This document shows, piece after piece, positions 17,616-63,797 of a stretch of 64,000 nucleotides of DNA. A program made the position numbers and the translations under genes. The notes under the pieces are model-generated. The model did not search any database. It saw only the letters and a program-made list of their open reading frames with translations, and was not told the origin of the DNA. The stretch comes from Opitutaceae bacterium TAV5 (GTDB lineage Bacteria > Verrucomicrobiota > Verrucomicrobiia > Opitutales > Opitutaceae): contig CP007053.1 in NCBI GenBank assembly GCA_000242935.3, positions 4,015,001 to 4,079,000 on the forward strand, written 5' to 3'. The first letter of the stretch is position 1. Every line of letters starts with the position of its first letter.

Positions 17616-19642
17616 GGAATGGAAAGAGGAGCGACCGGCGGATGTTTTTTTTCTGTTTTCGGGCTTTCGGGTGTTTCTGTCTCGTGGATTTGCCCGTCGT
17701 CGGACGCGTCGCGCTGTTTCTCACGGAGAAGGCGGACAAGGGCGACGAGGTCGCGCGAGCCGCCCCACAGGAACCAGATGACCGTGCCCGTGCCGACGAT
17801 CGCGCTGACGAGGATCACGAAGAGCCAGAAGCCGGCCCAGACGTTTTTGCTGAAGCCGATCGTCAGCCCGAGGATCGTGCCGAGGACAAAGATGAGCGTC
17901 CAGAAGCCGGTCCAGCCGAGTTTGAAAAGGTAGATGGCATTATCGCCGCGGGTGAAGTTCCGGGTGAAGCCGAGCACACGTTTCCAGCGAGGCAGCCCGG
18001 CGAGATCGGGAACGGAGACGGCCTCGCTGGCGAGGGCGTATTGGCCGCGGTGGAGAATGCGGTCGAGATTGGCGGGTTCGCGGCAGGTGGCGAGCGAGAC
18101 GAGGACGTAGCTGACGATGCTGGTGGCGTAGGCGATCATGGCGAGCCAGGCGCCGTTGACCGGAAACTTTGGCGCGAGCGCGACGAGGGCCGGGATGTGC
18201 GGCCAGGCGGCTTGCAGCGTGATACCGATGATCGCCACTGCGCAGCCGGAAATCATCGCCGTGTACGCGCCGGCAGTGGTGCCGCGTTTCCAGTAAAGGC
18301 CGCCAATGATGACCGCTCCGGAGCCGCCAAGATAGATCGTGCCGGTAAGCAGGAAATACATGAAGAGGTAGTCGCGCAGGGGGAAGAAGGCGCTCCAGCA
18401 AAACGCGAACACGGCGACAAACACGATGGAGGCGCGCAGCAGGAAGAGGTGGGCGCGCTGGGAGAGCGGCGGCTTGCCGTGGCGGAAGGGAAGCACGACA
18501 TCCTGCACGAAGATGGAGCCCCACGAATGCAGGTAGGAGTCGTCGGTGGCGACGGCGGCCATGACCATCGCGGCGGCGAGCAACCCGACGATGCCGGCGG
18601 GCAGCAGGGCGACGAGGGTGACAGGCACGGTCATCTGGGTGGCGGTCTGCGGGTCGCCGATGGCGGCGAGGGAGGTTTGCGCGGATTGCTGCACGGCGTC
18701 GTAGCCGGCGTGATGCAGGACCACGTAAGCGGCAATGGGCAGGATCATGAGCATGAGATAGGTGACGCCGTTGCGCCACTCGGCGAGCACGCGGGCCATC
18801 TTGGCTTCGTGCGGGGTGCGCGCGGAAGCATTGTAGCCGGAGGTCCCCTGCCAGCCGAGGCAGTTGTAAAACGCCTTGAAGGCAAAGATGGCAAAAAACC
18901 AGAAATTGAAATCGCTGATTTTTGACTGGTCAAAGGGATCGAGCAGCGACTTGCCGGGGGCGGTGGCGGAGAGCGCCTCGACGGTGTGTCCCCAGCCGAC
19001 TTTGTAGAAGACGACGGCCATGAGGACGAGGAACACAATGTTGAGGAACTGCGCCTGGAAAAAATCGGTGACCATGACAGCGACCATGCCGCCGCCGAAA
19101 ACAAGCAGGAGCGCCATGCCGAGGAAAAGCGCCATGATGACAAGCAGCGTGCGCACCTCGACGCCGGCAATGGTGAGCGTTTGCGGCAACCCGCAGAAGT
19201 GGATGAAGAAGTTGGCGACGATGCCGGGAAACACGCCGTAGTTGAGAACGCCCGACACCCACGTGAGCACGCCGGCGAAGATGCGGAAGCGGCGCGAGTA
19301 GCGCATTTCGAAAAACTGCGCCATGGTGAGCGCGCGCGTTTCGCGGAACCGGTAGGCGACCCAGCCGCTCATGGCCACGACCATGGCGATAGGGGCGAGC
19401 ATCATGCCCCACCAGTAGGCAGCGAAGCCGGCCTGGTAGAATTTTTCGAAGTTGGCGATGATGCTGGTGACGCCGAATGCGGCGATGCCTTCCGAAAGCG
19501 TGAGCAGGTAGCGTCCGGCGCAACGGTTGGCGGCGAGGAAATCGGAGACGCTGCGCGTGTAGCGACGTATCCACAGCGCCACGCCGGCCAGAGCGATGGC
19601 GGCGGCGATAACGATGGACCAGTCGAAGGGAGTCAGATGCAT
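17612..19642 (-). CDS. Sodium:solute symporter (SSS family)
   Basis: Encodes 676 residues from the ATG at 19642 (MHLTPFDWSIVIAAAIAL); the longer frame upstream lacks membrane character. About 13-14 membrane segments are visible, with SSS landmarks such as YTRSVSDFLAANRCAGRYLL, GYNASARTPHEAKMARVLAE and a late TGTIYLGGSGAVIIGGLYWK region. The C-terminal tail (residues ~640-676) is polar and charged. It probably imports an oligo- or monosaccharide with Na+ after extracellular digestion by the downstream enzymes. It follows the pseudopilin by 77 bp and overlaps the next gene by 4 bp. Confidence 0.92.
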   Translation of the reverse strand: MHLTPFDWSIVIAAAIALAGVALWIRRYTRSVSDFLAANRCAGRYLLTLSEGIAAFGVTSIIANFEKFYQAGFAAYWWGMMLAPIAMVVAMSGWVAYRFRETRALTMAQFFEMRYSRRFRIFAGVLTWVSGVLNYGVFPGIVANFFIHFCGLPQTLTIAGVEVRTLLVIMALFLGMALLLVFGGGMVAVMVTDFFQAQFLNIVFLVLMAVVFYKVGWGHTVEALSATAPGKSLLDPFDQSKISDFNFWFFAIFAFKAFYNCLGWQGTSGYNASARTPHEAKMARVLAEWRNGVTYLMLMILPIAAYVVLHHAGYDAVQQSAQTSLAAIGDPQTATQMTVPVTLVALLPAGIVGLLAAAMVMAAVATDDSYLHSWGSIFVQDVVLPFRHGKPPLSQRAHLFLLRASIVFVAVFAFCWSAFFPLRDYLFMYFLLTGTIYLGGSGAVIIGGLYWKRGTTAGAYTAMISGCAVAIIGITLQAAWPHIPALVALAPKFPVNGAWLAMIAYATSIVSYVLVSLATCREPANLDRILHRGQYALASEAVSVPDLAGLPRWKRVLGFTRNFTRGDNAIYLFKLGWTGFWTLIFVLGTILGLTIGFSKNVWAGFWLFVILVSAIVGTGTVIWFLWGGSRDLVALVRLLREKQRDASDDGQIHETETPESPKTEKKHPPVAPLSIP

Positions 19643-19719
19643 GGAAAACGAAGAGCAAGGGCACCGGGAGGCGAGCGCCATGCTGGAAAACGGGAAAATG
19701 ACGATGAAGGGAAATACGA

Positions 19720-20445
19720 CTACCAGGGTGTGAGAGCGGTGCCGGTGGGACTGCGATCCACTCCCCGCCAAAACATGGATGCCTGGCTGTAAGGCATGCG
19801 CTTCTGCTCGGGTGGCGGGAAATCATTTCCGCTTTCAGGTGGACGAAGCCGGTCGACATGACCGTCAGCAAACACACAATAAACCCATCCATCGTTGCGC
19901 GGAGCAGCCTTCCCCATTTCCAGATTGATGCTGTAGGAGTCCCCGATCAGCACCGTCCTTGATGGCATGGCAATCTGGCTGAACTGGAGTGGCGTCGCGG
20001 GCGTAGTGCGTATGCCCGAAGTGGTGTATTGGCTCAGGTAGGCATTGTATCCATACGAACGACAGGCGTCTTTTTTTTCCATCAATGGAGTGACGAAGAC
20101 AGTGCGACCGTAAACTTCCATGAAACGATCATAGGTATCGGGGGAGGGGGGCATCGAGGGCAAGGGACGTCCCGGATGGAGGATTTTCCAGAGTTCGTGC
20201 AGCCAGTAGTGGCCGGTGTTCGAGTCACCGTCATATACCGGGAGTTTCTGATTGTTTTCAGTGACGAAAATCTGGGTGGCGGCGCCGAGCTGGCGGAGAT
20301 TGCTCATCGACGTGGCCATGCCGGCTTTTTTCCGGACACTGCCGACGACCGGGATCATGATGCCGGCGAGGATGCCGATGATGGCGATGACGGTGAGGAG
20401 CTCGATCAGGGTGAAACCCTGGCGGGGGCGGGATGCGTTTTTCAT
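19720..20445 (-). CDS. Pseudopilin-like protein with H-X9-DG-type C-terminus
   Basis: Encodes 241 residues. It opens with a type IV/II prepilin leader: basic MKNASRPRQ, then [19 protein letters not shown], with cleavage expected before F and E at +5. The SNLRQLGAATQIF stretch and the C-terminal CVFADGHVDRL mark the family seen in Planctomycetes and Verrucomicrobia (prepilin N-cleavage plus H-X9-DG domain, TIGR04294-like); here the His before the DG is not obvious (NDGWVYCVFADG). It should be an inner-membrane-anchored periplasmic protein processed by prepilin peptidase. It sits 12 bp after the GH36-like gene and 77 bp before the symporter, so it is part of the glycan operon. Its task is unknown; see findings. 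Confidence 0.9.
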   Translation of the reverse strand: MKNASRPRQGFTLIELLTVIAIIGILAGIMIPVVGSVRKKAGMATSMSNLRQLGAATQIFVTENNQKLPVYDGDSNTGHYWLHELWKILHPGRPLPSMPPSPDTYDRFMEVYGRTVFVTPLMEKKDACRSYGYNAYLSQYTTSGIRTTPATPLQFSQIAMPSRTVLIGDSYSINLEMGKAAPRNDGWVYCVFADGHVDRLRPPESGNDFPPPEQKRMPYSQASMFWRGVDRSPTGTALTPW

Positions 20446-20457
20446 GGGGAGTCGGGT

Positions 20458-22569
20458 TTATGGAGTCAGGGTGAAAGGCTGACCGCCGGCGGGGAGGTCG
20501 ATACGAAGAAGACCGGCAGCGGAATGCCAGACAAGAACAGGACCGGCTTCGGCCCCGGTCAGCGTGACGGAGCCGGCGTCGGGAGCAATTTCGAAGCAGG
20601 TGACGAAGACCGGCGGCAGGTATTTTTCGGGGTTTCCCACCAGCGCCCAGCCGCGAATGACAGGTGAGAGAATCACGAAGGCGTCAGTGAGGGGTGCGAG
20701 GGTGAAGGTGACGGCGGGATCGTCGGCCGGGAGAAGGCGGGCGGTGCGGGCAAGGGTATCGTAAAGGAGGACCGGGTGGTTTTCGGAAGCGGGCAGGACG
20801 CCCGCGCCACTCGCCGGGAGCATGGCGTCGCGGTATTGGAGATCGTCCATGTGCCATGCGCCGCGGACGGTTTTCCCGGGGTGAGTGAGATTATAGGCGG
20901 CCAGTGCGGCGCAGCCGTGCGGGAGCGGGGCGATCACGCGGTACGCCTCGTTGTCCTCGTAAGGATCCATGAATACGCTCTCGGGCGTGGGAACTGCCGG
21001 AGCGAGCGGGCGCAGGATTCGACCGTCGGAAAGATGGAGCGGCGTGATCAGCTCGCGGACGAAATCGTCGGGATGATCGGAGAGATAAACCGGACCGCCG
21101 GAGATCGCCTTGCTGCGCGCCATGAGCGGACCGGCCACGCGGTCGCTGCTGTGAAACATGTCGTGATCGCCCCACACGGTCTGGCCCATCCAGAGCATGT
21201 TGCCGAGGGAATTGTGCAGATGGTGCTTCGCGCGCCAGGCGTCCTCCTTCTTGTAGTCCTCGCTGCATCGCATGACTTGCGACACGGGTTGATGAAGGAT
21301 GCACAGGTTGTTGTGAGCCATGCAGCCGATGACGGCCTCGAAATGCGCGGCGACGGATTTTTCGAGTCCGTGGCGGCAACCGGCGGCGGCAACGACGGCG
21401 TTCCGGACGTTGGATGATCCGGCGTACTTGCGAAGATTGGCGGCCTGGTTGTCCACCTTGAGGAAATCGAAACCGGCCTCGTAAACAGGTTTCGTGAAAG
21501 CTTCGTAAAAGACATCACCGTCGCCGGGCTGTTCGCCGGGGAGTTTTGCGGAATCGGGGGCGTCGTCGAGCGGGACGAGGTGACTGTCGATGTCCGTGCC
21601 GAGAGTGTGATCGGCAGCGATGCCGCCCCAGTAGCCGTTGTGGTTGAGCCAGAGGCCGAGCCAGCGCAGGCGCGGATCGGCGTCGGCGGCGGCGCGCACG
21701 GGAGCCCAGCCGCGGGGGAATTTTTCCGGGTGCGGATGCGCGCTGTGCAGGCAGCGGGCGTGCAGGGCGGCGGAGACCTGGCCGGGACCGTCGGCGGCGC
21801 CTTCACGGGTTTCGATGAGCGGGTCGGTGGCGCGGCTGCCGTCGTCGATGTGGCCGTCGTCGATCAGGGCCCAGCGTACGGGCACGGGAGAGGCGGCGAG
21901 GGCGCGGAGGGCGCCGGTGATGATGCGTTCGTTGATGTCGAGCTTGAACTCCTCGAACGAACACCAGCCGAGATACTCGAAAACCTCCGGGTAATGTTTG
22001 TCGCGGCGGAGACGGCCGACGCCGCGCATGGCCGGGTGCGCGAGGGCGATTTCCCAGACGCGGGCGCAGGCGGCGTAAGGACTGGAGGCGCGCGCGCAGG
22101 CAAGGAGGGGGAGTTCGCCGGTAAAGGTGGCGTCGGGGGCGCCGTAGTGCGACGCCTCGATACAGAGGGCGGCGGCATCGACGTCGCCCTGGAGCCAGGC
22201 GACTGACCTCATGCCGGCGAGCGGGAGAAGCGCGAGATAATCACCCTCGGCAAGTTCGAAGAGAGCGAACATGCCGCCGCGTTTGGCATGATGGAGTTCG
22301 TCGGCGGAACGGAGCGGAAGGGGGTGACACTGATTGTAGCCTTCGGGCCAGAGGTCGAGGTCGGGATTGATCGCATGGCGCTGGAACGGGGCATAATAGC
22401 AGCAGGTGCTCCATGCGGGGAGGATGACGGGCGCCGCCGCAAGCAGGCCATCGGCGCGTGGTACGGCGTTATGTAACGAAATTATAAATACGATTTCGTC
22501 GCCTGCGACCGGGAGACGGGCGGCGAGATCGAGGACGAGGACTTGCGGTTCTGTGTCGACGGCGGGCAT
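20458..22569 (-). CDS. GH36 / raffinose-synthase-like alpha-galactosidase
   Basis: Encodes 703 residues without a signal peptide, so probably cytoplasmic. The TIM-barrel region contains LGWCSFEEFKLDINE, WALIDDGHIDDGS, the nucleophile D373 in FDFLKVDNQA, and an acid/base candidate D438 in RCSEDYKKED. These fit the Sip1/raffinose-synthase branch of glycoside hydrolase family 36. It would act on alpha-galactosides carried in by the symporter; hydrolysis rather than transfer is an inference. A 22-nt REP-like sequence is embedded in the coding region near the C-terminus (residues GAGVLPA). It follows the CBM-like gene by 31 bp and precedes the pseudopilin by 12 bp. Confidence 0.87.
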   Translation of the reverse strand: MPAVDTEPQVLVLDLAARLPVAGDEIVFIISLHNAVPRADGLLAAAPVILPAWSTCCYYAPFQRHAINPDLDLWPEGYNQCHPLPLRSADELHHAKRGGMFALFELAEGDYLALLPLAGMRSVAWLQGDVDAAALCIEASHYGAPDATFTGELPLLACARASSPYAACARVWEIALAHPAMRGVGRLRRDKHYPEVFEYLGWCSFEEFKLDINERIITGALRALAASPVPVRWALIDDGHIDDGSRATDPLIETREGAADGPGQVSAALHARCLHSAHPHPEKFPRGWAPVRAAADADPRLRWLGLWLNHNGYWGGIAADHTLGTDIDSHLVPLDDAPDSAKLPGEQPGDGDVFYEAFTKPVYEAGFDFLKVDNQAANLRKYAGSSNVRNAVVAAAGCRHGLEKSVAAHFEAVIGCMAHNNLCILHQPVSQVMRCSEDYKKEDAWRAKHHLHNSLGNMLWMGQTVWGDHDMFHSSDRVAGPLMARSKAISGGPVYLSDHPDDFVRELITPLHLSDGRILRPLAPAVPTPESVFMDPYEDNEAYRVIAPLPHGCAALAAYNLTHPGKTVRGAWHMDDLQYRDAMLPASGAGVLPASENHPVLLYDTLARTARLLPADDPAVTFTLAPLTDAFVILSPVIRGWALVGNPEKYLPPVFVTCFEIAPDAGSVTLTGAEAGPVLVWHSAAGLLRIDLPAGGQPFTLTP
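20789..20810. repeat. REP-like 22-mer inside the GH36-like coding sequence
   Basis: This copy differs from the copies at 678-699 and 48046-48067 at one position (GGGCAGGACG for GGGCGGGACG). Here it is translated on the minus strand as part of ...SGAGVLPASEN..., in frame and without disrupting the protein. Confidence 0.75.
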
Positions 22570-22600
22570 GGGTGCGGGTGACGGGCGGGCCGGGCTGCGA

Positions 22601-23314
22601 TTATTCGAGGATCAGTTCGAGCACGGGATAAACGGCGCGGGCCTCGGGGCGGTTGTCCTTGGAATAAAAGGCGGCGCCCGGTGCCTTGTTGCCGCCTTCG
22701 CTGGTGACCACGAGCGTGATGATCGGGAGCGGCTCGCCGAGCGCGGGAGCGGCGGGGAGTGGCGAGGAACTGCCGCCGCGGGCCAGCGCCCAGTTGACAT
22801 AACCGGCCAGACGCTCGGGCGAGAGCCGGAACGGTTCACGCGATTCGAAGGCGCGGGCTTCGGAAAGATCGACCTCTGTCGAACCAAGGCGCACCGCGCC
22901 GGCGGTTCTGGTGACAACCTCGAGGGAAGCCGCTGCGAGGGGAGAGGTTTCCCAGATGACGGTTTTTTCGTCCCACGCCGCGGGTTTTACGCCGGTCACG
23001 CCCCATACGGCGAAGGGAACGGGTTCCGCGGCAGCATCGCCGATCCGGGAGAGCGGTATGAGCAGGAGCGTGGCGGACTTCACGGAGCGGCCCGAGCGGA
23101 TGACCGGCGCGAGTTCGAACTGGAGGAGCGTGCGGCGGATGTTGCCTTCGCCGCGGTTGGCGACGGCGAGCGCCCTGGGATTTTCCGATACGCTGTTGTC
23201 GCTGCGCACGAAGGCATCCTGCGCCGGCGTGAGGCGGAGGGTGTCGGAGAAAAGCCCGGAAGGCTGAAGGGCCAGCAGGGCGGAGAACAGGAGGAGGGTT
23301 CGGACGGGTTTCAT
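22601..23314 (-). CDS. Secreted carbohydrate-binding-like protein (CBM96/DNRLRE type)
   Basis: Encodes 237 residues with a signal peptide (TLLLFSALLALQPSGLFS). The mature part opens with LTPAQDAFVRSDNSVSENPR followed by NRGEGNIRRTLLQFEL, the signature of the DNRLRE/CBM96-like beta-sandwich often appended to alginate- and pectin-active enzymes. Here the module is a whole protein with no catalytic part. It probably binds the target glycan at the cell surface or in the periplasm. It lies between the PEP-CTERM autotransporter-repeat gene (47 bp upstream) and the GH36-like gene. Confidence 0.75.
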   Translation of the reverse strand: MKPVRTLLLFSALLALQPSGLFSDTLRLTPAQDAFVRSDNSVSENPRALAVANRGEGNIRRTLLQFELAPVIRSGRSVKSATLLLIPLSRIGDAAAEPVPFAVWGVTGVKPAAWDEKTVIWETSPLAAASLEVVTRTAGAVRLGSTEVDLSEARAFESREPFRLSPERLAGYVNWALARGGSSSPLPAAPALGEPLPIITLVVTSEGGNKAPGAAFYSKDNRPEARAVYPVLELILE

Positions 23315-25659: not shown

Positions 25660-26808
25660 GTGATTCGCCGTTCCCGACGCATTTCCCGCACGCCTGCCAC
25701 TTTGGTTGCCACGACCGAATCCGGCGGCTCCACCGTGAATGGCGGGCGTGTGCCAGGCATCCGCGAACTGGCGGCGGCGGTGGGGCTGAGCGTGAGCACG
25801 GTGTCGCGGGCGATGAACAACCGTTACGGCGTCGACGTGGAAACACGCGAGCGGGTCATGGCGGCGGCCCGGGAAATCGGTTACGTGCCCGACGCGGCGG
25901 CCCGGCGGCTCAAGTCGCATCCGCGGCTCCGTGTCGAGGTGCTTTTCTCTCCGTATCCGGGACCCAATCACGAAATCAACCCGGCGGCGCTGGCGACCTT
26001 GCAGGCGCTGCGCGAACGGGCCGCGGCGCGCGGGATCGCGCTTGCGGTGCGCGAACTGACGGACACGCAGCCGCCCGTCGAAGTCGCGGCAGACCTGGCG
26101 GCGCACGTGGCGGAGCAGGCCTTCGATGTCGCGATCACCTACGGGCATTTCCATGATGAAACGCTCGCCGTATTGCGCGACGGGGGGCTGCCGGTCGTGT
26201 GCCTGCAAAGCCCGGCCGCCGCTCCGCGCCAGATCGGCGTGACGGTGGACACGGCGGCCGCGGCGTATCAGATAACCCAGTACCTGGCGGCGCTCGGCCA
26301 TGCGCGCATCGCGCTCGTCGCCGGACCGGTCGAGGCGCTGCACCATCGCGGTTACCATCGGGGTTTTACGGAGGCGGCGGAGGAGTTCGGGCTGGAGTCA
26401 CCGGAAGCGTGGCGGTTTTCACTCGCGCCGCAGGCACTCAACGAGGCCGGCGCCGCGGCCGCGCTGGCGCCTTTGCTGGCGAAGCCCGCGGCCGAGCGGC
26501 CCACGGCGATCGTTTTCGCGTCGGACTGGCTGGCGATGGGCGGGTTGCGTGCCGCCGGAGCGGCAGGGTTGCGCGTGCCGGACGACGTGAGTCTGGCGGG
26601 CTTCGACAACGTGCCCGCCGCGGCCGGCCTGAAGCCGGCGCTGACCACGTTCGATGTCCATCACGACGCGATGGCCGACGCCGTCCTCGACGCTGCGATC
26701 GAGTTGATGGAAAACCCGCACGCTCCCGCCACGCCGGAGCAGGCCGCCCGCAGGGTGATGGCCGATCTCGTCAAGCGGGCGTCATGTGCGCGACAGGGGC
26801 GTCGATGA
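25660..26808 (+). CDS. LacI family transcriptional regulator
   Basis: The helix-turn-helix is GIRELAAAVGLSVSTVSRAM, followed by the hinge VPDAAARRLKS and a periplasmic-binding-protein-like sensor domain (EVLFSPYPGP, HARIALVAGPVEALHHRGY, AIVFASDWLAMGGL, VSLAGFDN). The start is uncertain: GTG codons at 25660, 25735 and 25750 and a TTG at 25621 are all in frame, and a start at 25735 would place the HTH closest to the N-terminus as in most LacI proteins. Divergent from the large glycan operon and beside two operators, it is the likely repressor of 25485-9911. It belongs to a different subfamily from the LacI proteins at 41197 and 58879. Its 3' end overlaps the convergent flavoprotein gene by 38 bp. 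Confidence 0.9.
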   Translation: MIRRSRRISRTPATLVATTESGGSTVNGGRVPGIRELAAAVGLSVSTVSRAMNNRYGVDVETRERVMAAAREIGYVPDAAARRLKSHPRLRVEVLFSPYPGPNHEINPAALATLQALRERAAARGIALAVRELTDTQPPVEVAADLAAHVAEQAFDVAITYGHFHDETLAVLRDGGLPVVCLQSPAAAPRQIGVTVDTAAAAYQITQYLAALGHARIALVAGPVEALHHRGYHRGFTEAAEEFGLESPEAWRFSLAPQALNEAGAAAALAPLLAKPAAERPTAIVFASDWLAMGGLRAAGAAGLRVPDDVSLAGFDNVPAAAGLKPALTTFDVHHDAMADAVLDAAIELMENPHAPATPEQAARRVMADLVKRASCARQGRR

Positions 26809-31073: not shown

Positions 31074-31718
31074 TCAGTTGTTCACGTGGAAGACTTTTGT
31101 CCAGGAGGGATCGACGACATATTCAACGTGTCCGTCCCAGTAGGCCACATTGATACCGTTGCCATGCATCCATTCGGGCCTGCCGCCTTTTACGCAATTC
31201 TCGAATTTCGCGTCACTCAGATAGTCGTTGGTATCAGGGGTGACGGCGTCGGCAAACTGGGGAACCCGGGTGAGTTGTCCCAGTTCCGATTCCAGGCTGA
31301 TGGTCCTGTCGGGCTTGAGCAGGATATAGGAAATCGTTTTCCACTGGCCGGCGAAAGGATTTGTGGCGTACTGCTCCAGGGCATCACGATCGGACGGACA
31401 CTGGAAAAGCGGGGTGGTTTTTTTCTCTTCCGGATTGGGCTTCAGGTAGGTGTAGAGCTGTTCAAACCAGTAAACGGTGCCTCCCTGACCGTCGTCCGTA
31501 ACGAAAGGGGAGGTGATCACCCTTCCCCGGTTGTCATGGGTGAAGAGCTGGGAAGCCAGGCAGAGCTGCCGGAGATTGCTGGCGCAGTTTACCCTGCGCG
31601 CGGCGCCACGAACCTTGCCGGTGACCGGGATGATGATCGCGGCCAGAATGCCGATGATCGCGATCACCGTGAGAAGTTCGATCAGGGTAAAACCGCGACG
31701 GGTGTGCTGAGTTTCCAT
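31074..31718 (-). CDS. Pseudopilin-like protein with H-X9-DG C-terminus
   Basis: Encodes 214 residues: leader METQHTRR, then [20 protein letters not shown] with E at +5, SNLRQLCLASQLF and Cys residues at about 40 and 48. The H-X9-DG ending is exact: H in WMHGNGINVAYWDGHVEYV is nine residues before DG. It is one of seven such genes or fragments in the window. It sits directly upstream of the heparinase-like gene and is preceded by an AT-rich likely promoter, so the pair may form a two-gene unit. Confidence 0.92.
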   Translation of the reverse strand: METQHTRRGFTLIELLTVIAIIGILAAIIIPVTGKVRGAARRVNCASNLRQLCLASQLFTHDNRGRVITSPFVTDDGQGGTVYWFEQLYTYLKPNPEEKKTTPLFQCPSDRDALEQYATNPFAGQWKTISYILLKPDRTISLESELGQLTRVPQFADAVTPDTNDYLSDAKFENCVKGGRPEWMHGNGINVAYWDGHVEYVVDPSWTKVFHVNN

Positions 31719-44236: not shown

Positions 44237-44373
44237 TCGTCGGCGTTCAATCTCTCCCCTCACAATAGTATGGGCTCGAAATCAAAATCATCTTCCCCTT
44301 CCACTTCTGCGGAAGTGTTTAATAGCTACAATTCCACAGTGACCACTGGTGGAAACCAGGCCGGACTTCCGGC

Positions 44374-55898: not shown

Positions 55899-56702
55899 TC
55901 AATAGCCGATGTGGACGTTGCGACCGAGGATTTCGCCTTTTTTAAACTGGCCGACGTGGCCGTCAACGAAGGCGACGTTGATGGTGTCGCCCGGATGGCG
56001 GTAGCGGAAAATGGCCTTGGAGGTGGGGTCGGGTTCGTCGCTGCTGGTGGCGATGGGCGTGGCACCGGAGGAATCGGTGGCCACGGTGCTGGTTGCCTCG
56101 GTGACGTTGTAGAAGTTGGATTGCGCGCCGCCCTGAGTCTGTTGCGCGGCGTCGGCGAACAGGATGACCTGGGTGGGACGTGGAACCGCGCCTTGCCGCA
56201 GGGGCTTTTTGCCTATACCCGCACTGTCCTTGCTGTCGTCCACCATGATTGCGGGGTGTGCGGCATACGAAACGAGGTTGGTTTCCTCCGCAACCGGGGG
56301 TATGTAGAGCCGCCCCGGACAGACGCCGACGGCGTTGCCCGTGCCGTAAATCTTGTCCGCATTCAGTTGTGTTTTCGAGCCGAGGTAGGGGCGCAGGGTT
56401 TGCGGCCAGAGCAGGGAGCCCGCGTTGTTGTTGTCAGAAGCGGCGACGCCGCTGCCGCCGTTCTGGACGGCGCGGGATGGCGGATAAAAACCGCGTTCGT
56501 CGGCGAACATCAGCGCGGCGATGGCGATCTGGCGGAGGTTGCTTTTGCAGGTGACGGTGCGTGCCGAGGCGCGCACACGCCCGACCGTCGGGATGATAAT
56601 GGCGGCGAGGATGCCGATGATGGCGATGACGGTCAGCAGTTCGATGAGCGTGAAGGCGCGAACGCGGGAAACACGCGGGGATTGGCGGATGATGGAGTGC
56701 AT
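55899..56702 (-). CDS. Pseudopilin-like protein with HX9-10DG C-terminus
   Basis: Encodes 267 residues: short leader MHSIIRQSPRVSRVRA, then [20 protein letters not shown], with A in place of the usual G at -1, which prepilin peptidases tolerate. SNLRQIAIAALMFADERGFY follows. The ending RHPGDTINVAFVDGHVGQFK has ten residues between H and DG. It lies 35 bp after the PEP-CTERM gene and upstream of the secreted toroid enzyme, completing the unit PEP-CTERM > pseudopilin > enzyme > MFS. Confidence 0.92.
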   Translation of the reverse strand: MHSIIRQSPRVSRVRAFTLIELLTVIAIIGILAAIIIPTVGRVRASARTVTCKSNLRQIAIAALMFADERGFYPPSRAVQNGGSGVAASDNNNAGSLLWPQTLRPYLGSKTQLNADKIYGTGNAVGVCPGRLYIPPVAEETNLVSYAAHPAIMVDDSKDSAGIGKKPLRQGAVPRPTQVILFADAAQQTQGGAQSNFYNVTEATSTVATDSSGATPIATSSDEPDPTSKAIFRYRHPGDTINVAFVDGHVGQFKKGEILGRNVHIGY

Positions 56703-56737: not shown

Positions 56738-57463
56738 TTAACGACGACGGATGAAAAGCAAACCGGCGCAGGCAATCAGGCCGAGGAGAAGAGCAGCTGA
56801 TGCGGGCTCGGGGATGGCGGTCAGGGAGCCGGTGAGGGTGAAGTTGTCGAACTCAAGGTTTTGCGTGTTGCCAGCGGCCTGGATATAGATGCGAAACTCG
56901 ACCGTGGTGCCGCCGACGATGCTCTGGTAAACGGAAGACGAAAGAGGAGTGGAAAAGTCCTTTAGCGTACCGTCGGCACGGGTTGGAAGGCCATCGGCAT
57001 TCGATCCCTGAAGGAGAATCTTGTCACTCTCGTTGCCGAATCCGGTGAGGGACGAGAGGACATAAAAAGCGCGGACACTCGAGTCGGATGCGTTACCCGA
57101 ACCTGACGCGGCCTGAAGGGAGACGGAGTCGATGGAAAGCGTGTAACCTTCGGCGACCGTTAGAGAGAAGGAGAGATACGCGGCGTTGGTGAAGGTGTTG
57201 GGAAAGCTGTAGCCGGTGGTGATCGCCGTGGCGGGCGAGACGGTGATCGCCGTGGAGACATAGCTGGTGTTGTTGCGGAGGACGTTGTTGAGATTGTGGG
57301 TCCCGACGGCGGAAGCCGTGATGCCTTCGATGGCCGTACAGGATTCCAGGATGGCGCTGTTGGTGCTGCCTTCGAAATCCCACGTGACGAGCGTGGCGGC
57401 GGGAAGCGTGGCGACCGAGAGCACGACGGCGAATGCCGGAAGGAGTTTGCGGGTAATGTTCAT
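56738..57463 (-). CDS. PEP-CTERM secreted protein, paralogue of 63036-63797
   Basis: Encodes 241 residues from the ATG at 57463 (MNITRKLLPAFAVVLSVATL). The mature jelly-roll-like domain begins ATLVTWDFEGSTNSA and has the blocks LTVAEGYTLSIDSVSLQAAS and GGTTVEFRIYIQAAGNTQNL that also occur in the protein at 63036. It ends with IPEPASAALLLGLIACAGLL and RRR, the exosortase signal. Probably a surface glycan-binding protein. A palindrome at 57572-57589 lies 109 bp upstream, as it does before the paralogue. Confidence 0.9.
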   Translation of the reverse strand: MNITRKLLPAFAVVLSVATLPAATLVTWDFEGSTNSAILESCTAIEGITASAVGTHNLNNVLRNNTSYVSTAITVSPATAITTGYSFPNTFTNAAYLSFSLTVAEGYTLSIDSVSLQAASGSGNASDSSVRAFYVLSSLTGFGNESDKILLQGSNADGLPTRADGTLKDFSTPLSSSVYQSIVGGTTVEFRIYIQAAGNTQNLEFDNFTLTGSLTAIPEPASAALLLGLIACAGLLFIRRR

Positions 57464-57738: not shown

Positions 57739-58737
57739 TCACCTGGTATCGTTGCGCTTGAGCTTCTCCAGCAGAAAGCCGAACAAATCCGGCCATTTCA
57801 TGCGGGAGTAGTCATTGTTGTAGTTGATCTCGTGTTCGATTCCCGCCGCCTCGAGTTTTTCTGCCAGACCGGCGCCAAAGTTTGCCGAATGCGGCGGGTC
57901 CTTGTAAGGCTGGCCGAGGTTGGGCGGGTTGTCGTAAAAAAGCAGTACGGGCGGATCACCGGGGCTTGCCAGCGTATACGGAGAAAACCTCTGAATCCAG
58001 GGAAGCAGCCTTTCCCGCTTTTCGAGAAATTCCTGCATGCTGCCCAGTCCGAAGGCGTGGTTGCCGTACTGGATATTCGGAATCCATGCCTGCATCTGCC
58101 GGGGATCCAGCGAAGTCTGTGGGACGAATGCCAATACGCAGCGCAGGCGCGTGGACTCGCGCGAAACGGGATCGGGACTCGCCGGCTCCGCCGTATCGGG
58201 ATGAAAGGCCAGCCACAGGGCGGTGAACCCGCCGGCCGATCCCCCGCAGCCGCCGATCCGCTCCTTGTCGATGCGCCATTCATCCGCCTTGCTGCGCACG
58301 AACTGGAGCGCGCGCGCCGCATCGTCCAGGCATGCCTTCACCGGGGGGCTGATCCCTGCGGCGCTGGCATCCGGAATCAGGCGGTAGTTGATCGAAACGA
58401 CCGAAATCCCGGATTCGGTGCACTTGGCCAGAAAGTCCGGGTTGGCCTTGTCTCCGGTCATCCAGCCTCCACCGTGGATGAAAAACAGGAGCGGCGTCTT
58501 GCCGGAGTTGGCCTTGCCTGCCTGATCCGGCGTCGCTTGATAAAAATCCAGCACCTGCCGTTCGTGTTGGCCATAGGGCACATTTGCCAGAGTTGGCTTT
58601 GGCACGGCAGCGGATTCTTGCGCGTGCCCATGTGAACAAACCCCGATTATGACCGCAAGGAGTGCAGGGATGGGGAAACGGGAGCGAAGTGTCATCCGGG
58701 AAAGTATATTTCCCATTGTGATGCTTGGAGTTTTCAT
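57739..58737 (-). CDS. Secreted alpha/beta-hydrolase (esterase/lipase family)
   Basis: Encodes 332 residues from the ATG at 58737; in-frame Met codons at 58716 and 58695 are also possible, and the last gives the most regular signal peptide (MTLRSRFPIPALLAVIIGVC, cut after HGHA). Oxyanion-hole motif HGGGW near 88, nucleophile elbow GCGGSAGG with S167, and late His/Asp candidates in DPPHSANFGAGL and GIEHEINYNNDYS. It fits BD-FAE-type carbohydrate esterases that remove acetyl or feruloyl groups. It is divergent from the LacI gene at 58879, sharing operator copy 2, so it is a likely target of that regulator. Confidence 0.87.
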   Translation of the reverse strand: MKTPSITMGNILSRMTLRSRFPIPALLAVIIGVCSHGHAQESAAVPKPTLANVPYGQHERQVLDFYQATPDQAGKANSGKTPLLFFIHGGGWMTGDKANPDFLAKCTESGISVVSINYRLIPDASAAGISPPVKACLDDAARALQFVRSKADEWRIDKERIGGCGGSAGGFTALWLAFHPDTAEPASPDPVSRESTRLRCVLAFVPQTSLDPRQMQAWIPNIQYGNHAFGLGSMQEFLEKRERLLPWIQRFSPYTLASPGDPPVLLFYDNPPNLGQPYKDPPHSANFGAGLAEKLEAAGIEHEINYNNDYSRMKWPDLFGFLLEKLKRNDTR

Positions 58738-58851: not shown

Positions 58852-58878
58852 CGTTGATTGTCTGATGCGTGTGGAGAC

Positions 58879-59922
58879 ATGGAATCCTCGTCCGAAAGAG
58901 TCACGCTCCAACAACTGGCGCGGCGGCTGGGCCTTCATCACGGGACGGTGTCGCGGGCGTTGCGCGGGCATCCGGGGATCGCGGCGGAGACGGTGCGGCG
59001 GGTGCGCGAGCTGGCGAAAGCCCTGGGATACCAGCCGGACCCGTATCTGGCGGGTTTGTCCGCATACCGACAGGGGCGGCGGGCTCCGCATTTCACGGGC
59101 ACGCTGGCATGGGTGACGAACTGGCCGACGCGCGACGGGTGGCGGAGCAATCACGCGTTTCCGCAGTATCTCGACGGGGCGCGGCGGCGCGCGGAATCGC
59201 TGGGATACAAGGTCGAGGAATTCTGGATACGCGAGCAAGGGCGCGGCGCGGAGGCGGCGTTGCGGGTGTTGCAGGCGCGGGGTGTGCAGGGGCTGTTGCT
59301 GGTGCCGCAACCGGAGTCGCATACGCGGCTGGATGCGGATCTTTCGTGGTTTTCGGCGGTGACGTTCGGCACGACGCTGGAGGCGCCGGAGCTCAACGCG
59401 GTGACGAGCCATCCGTATCGCACGATGATTGCGTTGCTGGAGAAGTTGCGCGAGCTGGGTTATCGGAGGCCGGGATTGGCGGCGTCGTGGTTTCACGAGG
59501 AGCGGGTCAACCGGATGTGGTCGGCGGGGTTCTGGGCGTACGAGGCGGAGCGCGGCCGGCGGCGGGGCGTGGTGCCGCCGTTGCTGATGGAGCGGCTGGA
59601 TGGCGGGGACGAAAGGGGGTTTTTCGGGTGGTTGCGCAAGCACCGTCCGGAGGTGGTGATCGCCACGGATCACGGGAAAGTGCGCGCGTGGCTGGAGGGA
59701 GCGGGTTGGAAAATCCCGGAGGAAATCGGGTTGGTGCCGCCGATCACGTCGGATAACTCGTGGTTTTCCGGGATGAACGAGAATGGTCCGGTCATGGGGG
59801 CGGCGGCGGTGGACCTGCTGGTGAGCATGCTGCACCGCAACGAGCGCGGCGTGCCGGAGCATCCGCAGCGGGTGATGATCAAGGCGACGTGGGTGGAGGG
59901 GAAGAGCGTGCGAGGGCAGTGA
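58879..59922 (+). CDS. LacI family transcriptional regulator
   Basis: Encodes 347 residues from the ATG at 58879 (MESSSERVTLQQLARRLGLH); an upstream in-frame codon at 58858 overlaps the operator block. HTH at residues 9-28 (TLQQLARRLGLHHGTVSRAL), hinge GYQPDPYLAGLSAYRQGR, then the sensor domain with VEEFWIREQGRGAEAALRVL and TDHGKVRAWLEGAGWKIPEE. It shares subfamily features with the LacI at 41197, and its first 19 residues match the partial LacI at 63944 at most positions. Operator copy 2 just upstream suggests autoregulation and control of the divergent esterase. Confidence 0.92.
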   Translation: MESSSERVTLQQLARRLGLHHGTVSRALRGHPGIAAETVRRVRELAKALGYQPDPYLAGLSAYRQGRRAPHFTGTLAWVTNWPTRDGWRSNHAFPQYLDGARRRAESLGYKVEEFWIREQGRGAEAALRVLQARGVQGLLLVPQPESHTRLDADLSWFSAVTFGTTLEAPELNAVTSHPYRTMIALLEKLRELGYRRPGLAASWFHEERVNRMWSAGFWAYEAERGRRRGVVPPLLMERLDGGDERGFFGWLRKHRPEVVIATDHGKVRAWLEGAGWKIPEEIGLVPPITSDNSWFSGMNENGPVMGAAAVDLLVSMLHRNERGVPEHPQRVMIKATWVEGKSVRGQ

Positions 59923-60974: not shown

Positions 60975-61724
60975 TCAGTAGGGCCAGTAGTAGTTGCGGT
61001 TGCGCATCTCGCCGGGTTTGAAGGCGCGCACGCTGCCATCGAGAAACACCGCCTGGCAGAGGCCGTTGTGACGGTAGCGGAAATAACCGGCGCTGGCGTC
61101 GTCATCGGCATCGGGGTCCGTGGCGGGGGAAAGGATGGCGTCGGGGTTGGACGGGATGGGGCGGGCGTTCCAGATAAAACCGTGGGATGCGCTTTTGGAG
61201 GACAAGGAGGAAATCTGGGCTCCATCGCCAAAAAAGATGATCTGCGAGCGGTCGGGGACGGCGTCGAGGCGGGGTTCGGGCGTGGTGGCGTTGACCGCGG
61301 CAAGGGTCTTGTTGATGGAGTAGGTGAATCTCGGATACTTGATGCGCGCCGGCACCGGGATTTGCGAGGCGGGACAAATGAAGAGGGGTAGCGTGGCGGT
61401 CGATCCCTGGTCGCCGGTTTCGCCTCCGGCCCAGGGGCGGAGCAGCCAGTTGTAGCCTTTGTCCTGGTCGTCGCCGCGGTAGGGAAACAGTCTGCCGCGA
61501 TTTTCCTCCACATAAAGGAGACCGGCGACGCCGAGTTGCCGGAGGTTGCTGCGACAACTCGCGGCGCGGGCGGTGGAGCGCACTTTGGAAACGGTGGGGA
61601 TGATGATCGCCGCGAGGATGCCGATGATGGCGATCACGGTCAGGAGTTCGACCAGAGTGAATCCGCGCACGACGGATGACAGGCGGGCGGACCGGAGACG
61701 GGGGATTTTGTGTGTGGGGTTCAT
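60975..61724 (-). CDS. Pseudopilin-like protein with H-X9-DG C-terminus
   Basis: Encodes 249 residues from the ATG at 61724 ([20 protein letters not shown]), then [20 protein letters not shown] (V for the usual I), [20 protein letters not shown] and the exact H-X9-DG ending ([20 protein letters not shown]). The start overlaps the stop of the upstream secreted-protein gene by 4 bp, so the two are translationally coupled. Last gene of the unit PEP-CTERM > helical protein > pseudopilin. Confidence 0.92.
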
Positions 61725-63013
61725 GGTGAGGGTGGAGACGAATTCGCCAGCCGGTGGAGCGCCTTGCGCATCGCCCACGCGTTTGCGGTTCCGTTCATGT
61801 CGCTTTGCGCGCCCGCGCGGGCAACACGACGGGGAGACAGGTAGAGATCGTTGGGTGAAATGTAGTAGCGGCCGACAAAGCTGGAAAAGGCTCCGTCGGG
61901 GCACCGATAGCGGGTGAGTTCGGTCAGCGAGGTGTCGATGACGGTGCGAAACTCTTCCGGAGTGAGGGGGAGTCCGGTTTGGCGCACAAGCGCGGCCAGC
62001 ATTTCGGCGGCGTTGCGGATGAAGAAGATTTTGTCCGTCACCGGTTCACTCCGATACCAGGCGAGCGTGCTTTTCCGGAGCCGGGCGGCGAGGGGGACGG
62101 GACGACCGACGTTGTTGCAGAAGGAAACGAACTTGAACGCCCCCGAAAGGCGCACGCTCATGGAGCCTCCCCTGACGAGCCCGGTGTCGGGATTCTGGCG
62201 GGCGCGGATGTTGCGCAAGGCTTCATCGACCAGGGCGCGCTGCAAGGCGGGCTCCTGGGCGCGAATCAGGCGGGCCTGAGAGGAGAGCTGGTCGAGGGCG
62301 GTCCAGGCATTGTCCCACGGGCGCGCGTCCAGCCATTCCCGGAAGGCTTCGACCGAGGCGAGGTGCGCGGGGACCGCCGGGGTGGTGGCCGCGGCAGCGG
62401 CCGTTTTGCGCACAAACAGGAGGCCGATTCCCGCCATGGCCGGGGGAGGGGGGGCCGCCGTCACCGCCGATTTCCCGGGCCCGTGCTCTCCGGGCAACGG
62501 ATGGAGCGGTTTGGCGCCGAGATGACGGAGTCCGTTGACGGAAAAGAGAAGCGCGCGGCCCATCGTCCGCGTGCTATCTTTCATTTCCGGATACGCGGGG
62601 TCGGAAAAGTATCCGGTTTCCGGATCCTGACGCGACTGGAAGAACCGCACGAGGGCGTCTTTCCGGGTGGGGGGCAGTCCGGCCAGTTGCCCGGCGTCGT
62701 TCAGCATCAGCACCGCGAAATACGTGGACTGGATATCCGCCGCGTAGGGGTGTTCCTCGCGTTGCTGTTTCAGTCCGGTTGTTTCGAAAAAGCCGCCGGT
62801 TTTTTCGTCGGCCAGGCTGAGAATCCACGGAACCACACCGGCAAACGCGGCATCCAGGCGTTGCAGTGCGTCGGCCACCGTTGCGTCGGCTGCCGTCGCA
62901 TCGGTGGCTGGCTGCACGTTGGCGACGGCTGCGCTGGCCGCGATCCCGGCGATGAGAAATGCGGCAAGGCCGGCGCGGACGAGGGTGGTGCAACTTGGGG
63001 AATGGCCGTTCAT
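61721..63013 (-). CDS. Secreted helical (alpha/alpha-barrel-like) protein, unknown
   Basis: Encodes 430 residues from the ATG at 63013 ([20 protein letters not shown]), with a signal peptide ending near AAVANV. The mature chain reads as repeated helix pairs with turn motifs of the terpenoid-cyclase/prenyltransferase-like toroid type: [58 protein letters not shown]. Such toroids occur in both lyases and binding proteins; no catalytic residue is clear. It lies 22 bp after the PEP-CTERM gene and overlaps the pseudopilin by 4 bp. Confidence 0.82.
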
Positions 63014-63035
63014 GGCGGGGTTCCGGTCGGGAAAT

Positions 63036-63797
63036 TCAACTGCGGTCGTGGCGGGAGCGGATGCGGCAGAGGCCGGCGACGGCAAGAGCGCCGAGGGCGA
63101 GGAGGAGGGCGTTGGTGGCGGGTTCGGGAATGGGGGTGAGGGTGCCGGTAAGGGTGATGTTGCCGAAGTCAACGGACCGATCGATGGAATCGGTCTGGAT
63201 ATAGATGCGGAATTCAACTTCGGTGCCACCGGCGATGTTCTTGAAGGCGGAATCGGTGAGGGTGACGGAGTAGTCTTTCAGCCCTTCGCTGCGGATGGGC
63301 AGAGTGCCGGGGAAACCGGATTGGTTCCTCCGGTCAAAGAGAAGGACATTGGCGTAGGCACTTCCGACGGGAGCGGTGAATTGGGTGAGATCGGAAAATA
63401 CATAGAAGGCGCGATGGGTGCCGGCAGAGCCGCCAGCAGCGGCCTGAAGCGAAAGCGTGTCGATTGAGAGCCTGTAGCCCTCTTCGACCGTGAGTTTGAT
63501 GGACAGATAAGTGGCATTGGAGAGAACGGTTGAAACAGAATAGGAGGTTTGGGCAGTGCCGGGAAGCAGGGTGATGGCACGGTTGCTGCCGTAGGTATAA
63601 TAGCCGCTACCGGTTCCGGTCCCGAGATTGTTGAGTGTGATCGCGCCGGCACTGACGCCGGTGGCGATGCTGGCGGCATCGGGTTTGAGGAGGTCGCCGG
63701 TGTCTTCGAAATCGTAAGTGACGAGGGTGACAGCCGGCAGCGTGGCGGCGGCGAGGCCGGCGGCAAGGGCGAGCGTGAGGAGGCGGGCGGTGTTCAT
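63036..63797 (-). CDS. PEP-CTERM secreted protein, paralogue of 56738-57463
   Basis: Encodes 253 residues from the ATG at 63797 (MNTARLLTLALAAGLAAATL). The jelly-roll-like body (VTLVTYDFEDTGDLLKPDAA, LTVEEGYRLSIDTLSLQAAA, GGTEVEFRIYIQTDSIDRSV) matches the protein at 56738 along its length. It ends IPEPATNALLLALGALAVAG followed by RIRSRHDRS. First gene of the minus-strand unit ending at 60975 and divergent from the partial LacI gene, with operator copy 3 between them. Confidence 0.9.
   Translation of the reverse strand: MNTARLLTLALAAGLAAATLPAVTLVTYDFEDTGDLLKPDAASIATGVSAGAITLNNLGTGTGSGYYTYGSNRAITLLPGTAQTSYSVSTVLSNATYLSIKLTVEEGYRLSIDTLSLQAAAGGSAGTHRAFYVFSDLTQFTAPVGSAYANVLLFDRRNQSGFPGTLPIRSEGLKDYSVTLTDSAFKNIAGGTEVEFRIYIQTDSIDRSVDFGNITLTGTLTPIPEPATNALLLALGALAVAGLCRIRSRHDRS

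What the first reader, a model, noticed from the sequence alone, without database searches (positions are those of the whole stretch)
19642..63797. Recurring pseudopilin-LacI-CAZyme modules that look like SusCD-free polysaccharide loci
Seven single pseudopilin genes or fragments (19720, 31074, 33661, 42433, 43295, 44374, 55899, 60975, the 43295 and 44374 pieces being one broken copy) share [18 protein letters not shown] and mostly an H-X9-DG ending. Each is next to, or overlaps by 4 bp, a gene for a secreted lyase, helical enzyme, GH130 or symporter, and several units add a LacI gene and a PEP-CTERM protein. No core type II or IV secretion gene is present. H-X9-DG pseudopilins are a known family in Planctomycetes and Verrucomicrobia, but their role is not established. 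Inference: each is a substrate-specific tip or cargo adaptor of one shared pseudopilus that exports or captures its partner enzyme or glycan, a functional counterpart of SusD-type specificity.
Basis: partly seen in the sequence, partly recalled or inferred. Interest (0 to 1): 0.78.

Follow-up and report, generated by a model that had tools for sequence, protein, structure and literature searches.

The report
Sugar-controlled operons each with a pilin
This termite-gut bacterium carries about two hundred different pilin-like genes, many placed beside secreted sugar-degrading proteins and behind sugar-sensing regulators, which suggests that it changes part of its surface filament to suit whatever plant sugar it is eating.

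Summary
In detail: six intact pseudopilin genes and one decayed tandem copy lie where stated, among polysaccharide genes. It is also a genome-wide rule. G000, which matches Opitutaceae strain TAV5 by size, has at least 207 prepilin-motif places, but one GspG over the family cut-off, one prepilin-peptidase match and no SusD (PF07980). Operon neighbours of pilins look secreted in 138 of 209 cases against 43 of 231 random genes. A LacI gene lies divergently within 500 bp of 26 of 207 pilins, against 1.1 expected. Secreted neighbours are also enriched in 80 loci of other, mostly PVC, organisms; the LacI pairing repeats in one of three other genomes tested. The exact partner is not conserved: similar pilins mostly have unrelated neighbours. 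Best reading: sugar-induced, interchangeable minor pilins with a fixed scaffold and variable head, used for glycan capture or contact by a shared machine. Function is inferred. One 2026 paper already reports such a pseudopilin in an alginate operon; my searches found no genome-scale LacI-pilin-enzyme rule.

The parts
17612..19642 (-). SSF sodium:solute symporter, downstream of pilin 19720
   Evidence: PF00474 E 7e-20; TIGR00813 below cut-off
19720..20445 (-). pseudopilin 1 (N instead of H at the H-X9-DG position)
   Evidence: TIGR02532 over cut-off; genome place 4035356
20458..22569 (-). raffinose-synthase/GH36-like protein, no signal peptide by my predictor, 12 bp upstream of the pilin
   Evidence: PF05691 E 8e-37
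22601..23314 (-). secreted CBM96-like protein
   Evidence: PF24517
23362..25485 (-). PEP-CTERM protein with autotransporter-type repeats
   Evidence: TIGR02601, TIGR02595 over cut-off
25702..26808 (+). LacI regulator, divergent from the unit 25485-17612
   Evidence: PF00356 E 1e-14
28555..30972 (-). secreted heparinase II/III-like lyase, downstream of pilin 31074
   Evidence: PF07940 E 9e-6, 25.8 against cut-off 24
31074..31718 (-). pseudopilin 2, H-X9-DG present; AF2 model
   Evidence: TIGR02532; model mbc39b36eb7eb, pLDDT 72.3
32047..33591 (-). glycerol-kinase-like (FGGY) gene between two pilins, no signal peptide by my predictor
   Evidence: sequence by inspection; FGGY tally for one unnamed member of the set that contains it
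33661..34260 (-). pseudopilin 3, overlaps the GH130 gene by 4 bp
34257..35555 (-). GH130 mannoside-phosphorylase-type protein, no signal peptide by my predictor
   Evidence: PF04041; 9fj8, 5b0p, 7fip
35567..36757 (-). secreted right-handed beta-helix protein
   Evidence: PF13229 E 6e-5, below the curated cut-off
36883..37716 (-). PEP-CTERM-like secreted protein heading the unit
   Evidence: sequence by inspection; no NCBIfam match at E<=0.001
38896..39765 (-). AraC regulator with PocR sensory domain
   Evidence: PF12833, PF10114
41197..42372 (-). LacI regulator, divergent from pseudopilin 4 with a 60-bp gap
42433..43170 (+). pseudopilin 4, H-X9-DG present; AF2 model
   Evidence: PF07963, PF07596 in the ORF that contains it; model mdc1fe151cc62, pLDDT 70.9
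43295..44476 (+). decayed tandem copy of pseudopilin 4
   Evidence: 86% over 253 bp, 76% over 68 bp
44729..46696 (+). heparinase II/III and alginate-lyase-like protein (start uncertain, ORF from 44609)
   Evidence: PF07940, PF05426
52285..53685 (-). MFS transporter closing the unit
   Evidence: PF07690
53822..55705 (-). secreted enzyme-like protein without a Pfam match; four copies in the genome (itself and three paralogues), each with a pilin motif in the 1.5-kb flank
55899..56702 (-). pseudopilin 5 (H-X10-DG)
56738..57463 (-). PEP-CTERM-like protein
   Evidence: weak NF038129 and NF038126, below cut-off
57739..58581 (-). BD-FAE-type esterase heading the unit
   Evidence: PF20434 E 2e-22
58858..59922 (+). 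LacI-type regulator, divergent from the unit 58581-52285 (my caller's start 59002 would cut the HTH)
   Evidence: PF00356 and PF13377 over cut-off
60975..61724 (-). pseudopilin 6, H-X9-DG present (longer start 61778 or 61904 possible)
61721..63013 (-). secreted protein without a Pfam or PDB sequence match, overlapping the pilin by 4 bp
63036..63905 (-). PEP-CTERM-like secreted protein heading the unit
   Evidence: sequence by inspection; no Pfam or NCBIfam match

Best explanation
These are sugar-regulated catabolic operons, most with their own minor pseudopilin. SHOWN: more than 200 related prepilin-motif places in one genome; the genes share a type IV pilin N-terminal helix and a set of majority head motifs with very variable stretches between; they sit in operons with secreted polysaccharide-active or glycan-binding-type proteins; a sugar-regulator-type gene is often divergent from them; one GspG over the family cut-off, one prepilin-peptidase match and a few assembly ATPase and secretin loci exist for all of them. 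INFERRED: when a glycan is present, its LacI-type regulator releases the operon and the matching pilin is made, cleaved by the single peptidase and inserted as a minor subunit, at the tip or along the filament, into a shared type II or type IV filament. Its variable head touches the glycan, or the glycan-bound surface proteins of that operon, holding substrate at the cell while the co-induced enzymes cut it. It would work like SusD in giving substrate specificity, without being related to SusD. Partner enzymes can be exchanged over evolution because the pilin recognises the substrate and not the enzyme.
For: Number: 173 chromosomal motif places from TIGR02532 and a strict pattern, 207 with the TIGR01710 list (all three lists are capped, so a lower bound). 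Sugar control: LacI divergent within 500 bp of 26 of 207 pilins against a mean of 1.1 (maximum 5) in 500 shifted controls, and within 1.5 kb 45 of 207 against 3.3 (maximum 11); the 34 places added last show it too, 8 of 34 within 1.5 kb against 0.5 with LacI placed at random. Of pilins with a divergent neighbour under 400 bp, 24 of 37 face the LacI cluster, against 7 of 64 control genes. Secreted-like neighbours 138 of 209 against 43 of 231 random genes (OR 8.5, p 1.5e-24) and 33 of 124 genes four places away. In 20 randomly placed 20-kb regions 11 of 62 secreted-like genes touch a same-strand pilin against 3 of 221 others. PEP-CTERM-like neighbours 47 of 210 (one gene counted on both sides) against 4 of 231. 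Neighbour Pfams: Laminin_G_3, beta-helix, BNR, alginate lyase, heparinase II/III, GH42, GH115, AXE1, BD-FAE, against a household mix in controls, which also holds three heparinase II/III. No PF07980 SusD; 18 TonB plug matches, none within 6.9 kb of the 173 listed pilins. Shared machine. Against enzyme adaptor and for substrate contact: non-secreted partners and partner turnover. Other genomes: LacI divergent within 1.5 kb of 5 of 32 pilins of G018 (p 0.001), and LacI upstream co-directional in 3 of 48 of G089 (p 0.002); secreted neighbours 21 of 59 against 41 of 242 in 80 mostly PVC loci (p 0.0035). Precedents: glycan-binding minor pilin in S. sanguinis (PMC9934059, outline and abstract seen); a pseudopilin inside an alginate-induced operon (PMC13274419).
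Against: No glycan binding or filament incorporation is shown. LacI pairing is not general: divergent from 0 of 48 pilins in G089 and 1 of 37 in G078 (rough expectation 0.2). CG-centred LacI-type palindromes are not enriched between LacI and pilin (mean best 4.67 against 4.61 of 8). 14 of 40 pilins with a divergent neighbour face a gene outside the LacI cluster. The ten other genomes of the family have only 3 to 32 motifs, so a large repertoire is not needed there. The neighbour test in family f18 is only a trend (8 of 16 against 25 of 92, p 0.08), and its distant set includes genes of 5 of 20 loci in which my caller found no pilin. In the PVC loci some pilins sit by type II or household genes.
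Confidence: 0.4

Rival explanations
1. Export adaptor, the reader's main idea: each pseudopilin is a cargo-specific tip of the shared type II pseudopilus that carries its neighbour enzyme through the outer membrane.
For: Neighbours are mostly secreted-like (138 of 209). The genome has a type II system: GspD-E-F-like genes near 3.79 Mb and a gspG-H-I-K-like operon near 6.0 Mb. Co-duplicated pairs exist: pilin pairs with homologous neighbours have mean head similarity 0.103 against 0.057, maximum of 2000 permutations 0.072. PMC13274419 suggests that the type II system could export the alginases (passages).
Against: Operons whose only neighbours are non-secreted by my predictor (31 of 142), and in the window the neighbours of 19720 and 33661; homologous enzymes without a pilin motif in another family (0 of 5 loci, flanks of at most 1.5 kb); similar pilins beside unrelated enzymes (18 of the 20 most similar pairs have no homologous operon neighbour).
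Confidence: 0.25
2. Periplasmic or inner-membrane glycan-binding proteins: the prepilin helix is only a membrane anchor, and the heads bind oligosaccharides in the periplasm for SSF or MFS uptake or for signalling, without entering a filament. Pfam names the related PF07596 'SBP_bac_10'.
For: SSF and MFS transporters and a phosphorylase without signal peptide occur in the same units. PMC2754498 calls DUF1559 a solute-binding family (passages).
Against: The helix is strongly conserved beyond the motif by which the rows were chosen (V36, I39, I40, G41, L43 and A58 invariant in 61 rows; F, T, L and E are invariant partly by that choice), which a mere anchor would not need; the PDB sequence relatives are filament pilins and a GspG, over the helix.
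Confidence: 0.16
3. Expansion of generic adhesive pilins that ride in operons because they are useful with any surface polymer, with no substrate specificity.
For: Partner identity is not conserved across genomes (3 of 14 against 6 of 33); heads diverge with little relation to neighbours; LacI pairing is weak or absent in G089 and G078.
Against: Individual LacI pairing of many copies here and a distinct pilin per operon would be pointless for a generic adhesin; pilin-pilin adjacency is rare (8 counts over 159 pilins).
Confidence: 0.14

Closest known systems
Alginate operon of Verruconatronum alginivorum AB-alg1 (PMC13274419; passages, section 17 part 1 of 2)
   Same: Opitutales; polysaccharide lyases, an SSF transporter and a pulG-like pseudopilin in one cluster that appeared up-regulated on alginate; 67 homologues of that pseudopilin in the genome; a type II system elsewhere; a further pseudopilin outside the clusters significantly over-expressed on alginate
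   Different: One cluster in one strain, single-replicate proteomics; no genome-wide rule and no LacI pairing in the text seen; the authors point to enzyme export
H-X9-DG / DUF1559 (PF07596) paralogue families of PVC bacteria
   Same: Prepilin N-terminus, C-terminal H-X9-DG-type end, tens of copies per genome: 68 DUF1559 paralogues in Planctopirus (PMC10632474, passages), 74 in Rhodopirellula (PMC2754498, passages)
   Different: Window members score below the TIGR04294 cut-off; the passages seen link the family to essentiality or stress, not to sugar operons
Glycan-binding minor pilin PilC with PilA of Streptococcus sanguinis (PMC9934059, abstract and outline seen)
   Same: A minor pilin giving a filament glycan specificity
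   Different: PilC carries a lectin module; the two models here show no added domain
SusD/SusC polysaccharide utilisation loci of Bacteroidota (recalled)
   Same: Substrate-specific surface component encoded with enzymes and a regulator
   Different: No PF07980 match in the genome, no TonB plug within 6.9 kb of the 173 listed pilins, unrelated protein family
Pili-like fibres and dextran uptake in Planctomycetes (PMC5394234, passages)
   Same: PVC superphylum, macromolecule uptake with crateriform structures and their fibres suspected
   Different: Fibre protein not named in the passages seen; no gene linkage

Membership tests
Type IV pilin superfamily | Class 3 signal with G/A-F-T-L-x-E and hydrophobic helix | tested here: met
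   TIGR02532 over cut-off in the 7 N-terminal pieces of 8 proteins scanned; 51-residue helix in both models; PDB hits are pilins over the helix
Type II major pseudopilin GspG | Score over TIGR01710 cut-off 88.85 | tested here: not met
   6 of 6 intact window pilins 32-41 bits; of 150 scored matches among 289 genome candidates one is over the cut-off, at 5998106, outside the window
H-X9-DG-CTERM (TIGR04294) | Score over cut-off 19 | tested here: not met
   Best 18.8 and 16.7 bits among 8 scanned, no match in the rest, although 73 of 159 genome pilins carry H-X9-DG by pattern
DUF1559 / SBP_bac_10 (PF07596) | Score over gathering cut-off | tested here: inconclusive
   The ORF with pilin 42433 passes (28.5 against 23.3, over 42 of 268 profile positions); the other five were not scanned against Pfam
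SusCD polysaccharide utilisation locus | SusC/SusD pair | tested here: not met
   PF07980 0 in genome (other SusD models not searched); nearest TonB plug 6.9 kb from a listed pilin
Polysaccharide utilisation locus in the loose sense | Regulator plus degrading genes, co-regulated | tested here: inconclusive
   Gene linkage met; expression not testable here; partial precedent in PMC13274419
T2SS minor tip pseudopilin (GspH/I/J/K) | Incorporation at the pseudopilus tip | not testable with these tools
   needs biochemistry; a separate gspG-H-I-K-like set exists
SusD-like function | Surface glycan binding with substrate specificity | not testable with these tools
   no binding data; no added domain in the models

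The most novel reading that the evidence does not exclude
The cell builds a re-toolable filament: each glycan operon encodes its own glycan-recognising minor pilin, and LacI-type regulators decide which of some 200 heads are inserted into one shared pilus or pseudopilus. This would be a combinatorial, SusCD-free capture system for polysaccharides in the PVC superphylum.
Probability: 0.3. Interest if true: 0.9.

Novelty: new variant of a known kind. Interest (0 to 1): 0.69.

Why it matters
How Verrucomicrobiota and Planctomycetota take hold of complex polysaccharides without SusCD is an open question, and their large pseudopilin families have no agreed role. A statistically strong link between sugar regulators, pilins and secreted glycan-active proteins, in what appears to be a named and cultured strain with a finished genome, makes the question testable: it predicts which pilin should respond to which operon, and gives about 200 natural variants of one head to compare.

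Tried and rejected
Enzyme-specific co-evolution: the head-similarity test is significant in the mean, but only 12 of the 82 pairs reach a similarity of 0.2; the median (0.064) is near background and the correlation with neighbour identity is weak (Spearman 0.19, p 0.10). Conserved pairing across genomes: not seen (small sample, LacI and pilin hits left out, and the G000 gene set is biased towards pilin regions). LacI pairing elsewhere: clear in G018, absent as a divergent layout in G089, 1 of 37 in G078. LacI operators: CG-centred palindromes between LacI and pilin not enriched over Markov shuffles (that script ended in an error after printing these results, and the comparison with other divergent pairs was not completed). 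The Foldseek search gave no hit at E<=0.001; the second model was not searched. PDB sequence search named neither 53822, 61721 nor 28555. Paper searches for H-X9-DG or prepilin, DUF1559, pseudopilin or pilin with Verrucomicrobia, Planctomycetes, Opitut- or TAV2 and with polysaccharide, LacI, glycoside hydrolase or lyase gave one relevant case; listings show only the best 10 to 25 papers, and the library holds only open-licence papers. PMC5615132 and PMC8857213 hold none of my pilin terms in the main text.

Limits of method: genes were called by my own hexamer caller (a length-based caller), signal peptides by a crude pattern, so absolute fractions are rough; the same rules were used on both sides of each comparison. 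TIGR02532, LacI and TIGR01710 lists are capped at 150 scored candidates each. One plasmid pilin place was dropped, leaving 149, plus 24 from the pattern list, of whose 107 matches only the first 100 are printed. 159 unique pilin gene models came out of the regions around 173 places; 158 entered the similarity test. Nine pilin-type neighbours (5 up, 4 down) were dropped before the neighbour counts. The 231 control genes leave out genes within three places of a pilin. Pfam tallies used all 97 upstream, 88 of 113 downstream and 130 of 231 control proteins, and show only the 25 commonest families. In family f18, 15 of 20 fetched loci had a called pilin.

Full report
WHAT IS THERE. The window is bases 4015001-4079000 of contig 1 of a 7,417,673-base genome in two contigs. 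The contig lengths (7,317,842 and 99,831) equal those published for Opitutaceae bacterium TAV5 from a termite hindgut (PMC4358385, whole text read); that the genome is TAV5 is an inference from size alone. The prepilin motif occurs seven times in the window, against 0.15 expected: six open genes and one decayed tandem copy beside the fourth. Around them lie heparinase II/III-like lyases, a GH130, a GH36-like protein, beta-helix-like proteins, a BD-FAE esterase, PEP-CTERM-like proteins, SSF and MFS transporters, three LacI-type genes and an AraC/PocR gene. The corrections are that the neighbours of two of the six pilins (19720, 33661) carry no export signal by my predictor and that the H-X9-DG motif is strict in four of six.

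IT IS A GENOME-WIDE RULE. The genome holds at least 207 prepilin-motif places, about 3% of the 6,096 genes published for TAV5. The same search in 131 genomes of the order finds the motif in 130, with 0 to 59 scored copies each, and 3 to 32 in the ten other genomes of the family (scoring there was capped at 59 per genome), so this genome is an extreme expansion. I fetched the surroundings of 173 places and 20 random 20-kb control regions, called genes and obtained 159 unique pilins. Of these, 143 have a same-strand neighbour within 150 bp. Operon neighbours look secreted in 138 of 209 cases, random genes in 43 of 231, genes four places away in 33 of 124. PEP-CTERM-like ends occur in 32 of 97 upstream and 15 of 113 downstream neighbours against 4 of 231. 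Looking only at the randomly placed regions, 11 of 62 secreted-like genes touch a same-strand pilin against 3 of 221 others. Pfam tallies of neighbours show laminin-G-like lectin folds, beta-helices, BNR propellers, alginate lyase, heparinase, GH42, GH115 and esterases; the control set shows a household mix, with three heparinase-like proteins among 130.

SUGAR REGULATORS. LacI genes lie divergently upstream within 500 bp of 20 of 173 pilins against a mean of 0.9 in circularly shifted controls (maximum 5), and within 2 kb of 40 of 173 against 3.3 (maximum 9). With the larger union the figures are 26 of 207 against 1.1 within 500 bp and 45 of 207 against 3.3 within 1.5 kb; 8 of the 34 newly added places show it, against 0.5 with LacI placed at random. 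The distances fall in two groups, 157-268 bp and about 900-1400 bp. In gene terms, 26 of 159 pilins have LacI as direct divergent neighbour and 17 more have it behind one intervening gene. Among pilins with a divergent neighbour under 400 bp, 24 of 37 face the LacI cluster, against 7 of 64 control genes. My LacI cluster is a single-linkage set that includes GntR-headed sugar-type regulators. A search for CG-centred operator palindromes found no excess.

ONE SHARED MACHINE. Of 150 scored matches only one passes the GspG cut-off (5998106), in an operon with GspH, a prepilin-type GspI-like and a T2SSK-like gene (the K match is below Pfam's cut-off, and I is named by motif and order only). GspD-, E- and F-like genes lie near 3.79 Mb, PilB-, PilT- and PilC-like genes near 6.44 Mb, and a PilQ-like secretin with an ATPase near 6.20 Mb (all but PilT are below NCBIfam cut-offs). 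Thirteen T2SE-family matches exist in all. There is one Peptidase_A24 match. SusD (PF07980) is absent. Eighteen TonB plug matches exist, none within 6.9 kb of the 173 listed pilins. The operon pilins are therefore additional to a canonical pseudopilus and, if assembled at all, must share its machine or that of a type IV pilus.

THE PILIN ITSELF. In an alignment of 61 pilins of this genome the helix is nearly invariant (F, T, L and E partly by the way the rows were chosen), and most rows keep W98, C133-P134, Y149, N152, P171, D179, H204, N209, F212 and D214-G215-H216-V217 (numbering of the 42433 protein; from 35 of 61 for D179 to 58 of 61 for D214) between very variable stretches. Profiles built from each window pilin match 158 of the pilins by the helix; after four rounds 126 to 157 of them match beyond 60% of the query. 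Two AlphaFold2 models (pLDDT 70.9 and 72.3, pTM 0.66 and 0.68) agree on a 51-residue helix, a C-terminal hairpin carrying the DGHV motif and low-confidence variable stretches, with no added domain. PDB sequence relatives are filament pilins and a GspG, over the helix only; the Foldseek hits are weak.

SPECIFIC PARTNER OR SPECIFIC SUBSTRATE? Pilin pairs with homologous neighbours (82 of 12,403) have more similar heads than permuted pairs (mean 0.103 against 0.057, maximum of 2000 permutations 0.072), but the median is 0.064, and only 2 of the 20 and 9 of the 50 most similar pilin pairs have homologous neighbours, though that is well above the 0.7% overall. The 53822 enzyme has four copies here, all with a pilin motif in the 1.5-kb flank; five homologues at 37-44% identity, in three genomes of one other family, have none in the flank held, at most 1.5 kb and shorter at contig ends. 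Across other genomes, genes next to pilins do not map to pilin-adjacent homologues here more than other genes do (3 of 14 against 6 of 33). Of 142 pilins with a non-pilin operon neighbour, 31 have only non-secreted ones. So the kind of neighbourhood is conserved and the exact partner is not. This fits recognition of a substrate better than recognition of an enzyme, but also fits a generic role.

OTHER ORGANISMS. In genome G018 of another family, LacI is divergent within 1.5 kb of 5 of 32 pilins (p 0.001). In G089 it is so for 0 of 48, although 3 of 48 have LacI upstream on the same strand (p 0.002). In G078 it is so for 1 of 37. In 20 loci of these three genomes (15 with a called pilin) neighbours look secreted in 8 of 16 cases against 25 of 92 distant genes, a trend only. 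In 80 loci from Verrucomicrobiota, Lentisphaerae, Planctomycetota and a few others, with 69 called pilins, neighbours look secreted in 21 of 59 cases against 41 of 242 (p 0.0035). Their Pfam tally includes PEP-CTERM, beta-helix, heparinase and LacI-type effector domains, but also T2SSF and household genes.

KNOWN WORK. PMC13274419 (passages; section 17 part 1 of 2) describes an alginate cluster of another Opitutales strain with PL15, PL29 and PL39 enzymes, a symporter and a pulG-like pseudopilin; the cluster appeared up-regulated as a unit on alginate, with one replicate, and that pseudopilin has 67 homologues in the genome. The text seen names one significantly over-expressed pseudopilin, outside the clusters, and does not say whether the one inside was significant. 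It is the nearest precedent and lowers the novelty. Large DUF1559 families are reported in Planctopirus (68, two essential) and Rhodopirellula (74) (passages). PMC9934059 shows that a minor pilin can bind glycans (abstract and outline). My searches found no description of the LacI-pilin-enzyme rule; the library is open-licence only and listings are partial.

VERDICT. The substrate-tuned filament subunit is my favoured reading, as inference (0.40); export adaptor, membrane-anchored binder and generic adhesin remain possible.

Noticed in passing
43295-44476: A tandem copy of pseudopilin 4 has decayed, with unrelated coding-like sequence between its two remaining ends; duplication beside a LacI gene may be how new copies arise.
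   Followed up: partly
G000 C1:2413256-2416621 (L179): Only one Peptidase_A24 match in a genome with over 200 prepilin-motif places.
   Followed up: partly
L173 and L176: Two further regions with a T2SE match, GspF-like genes and odd pilin genes (GFTLLEL, GFTLVEML) that look like separate type IV pilus islands, L173 near a recombinase-like gene (by inspection).
   Followed up: no
G000 C2:49576-54267: The plasmid carries T2SE-family matches and a prepilin motif.
   Followed up: no
window 60125-60778: DUF2959 lipoprotein-like gene convergent with pseudopilin 6.
   Followed up: no
L237 and L244: In two Opitutia records a pilin stands next to a gene 73-76% identical to a TAV5 gene that looks like a branched-chain aminotransferase (name by inspection); possibly a separate conserved household pilin.
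   Followed up: no
family rows: The ten other genomes of the family have only 3-32 motifs against over 200 here, so the expansion looks specific to this lineage.
   Followed up: partly
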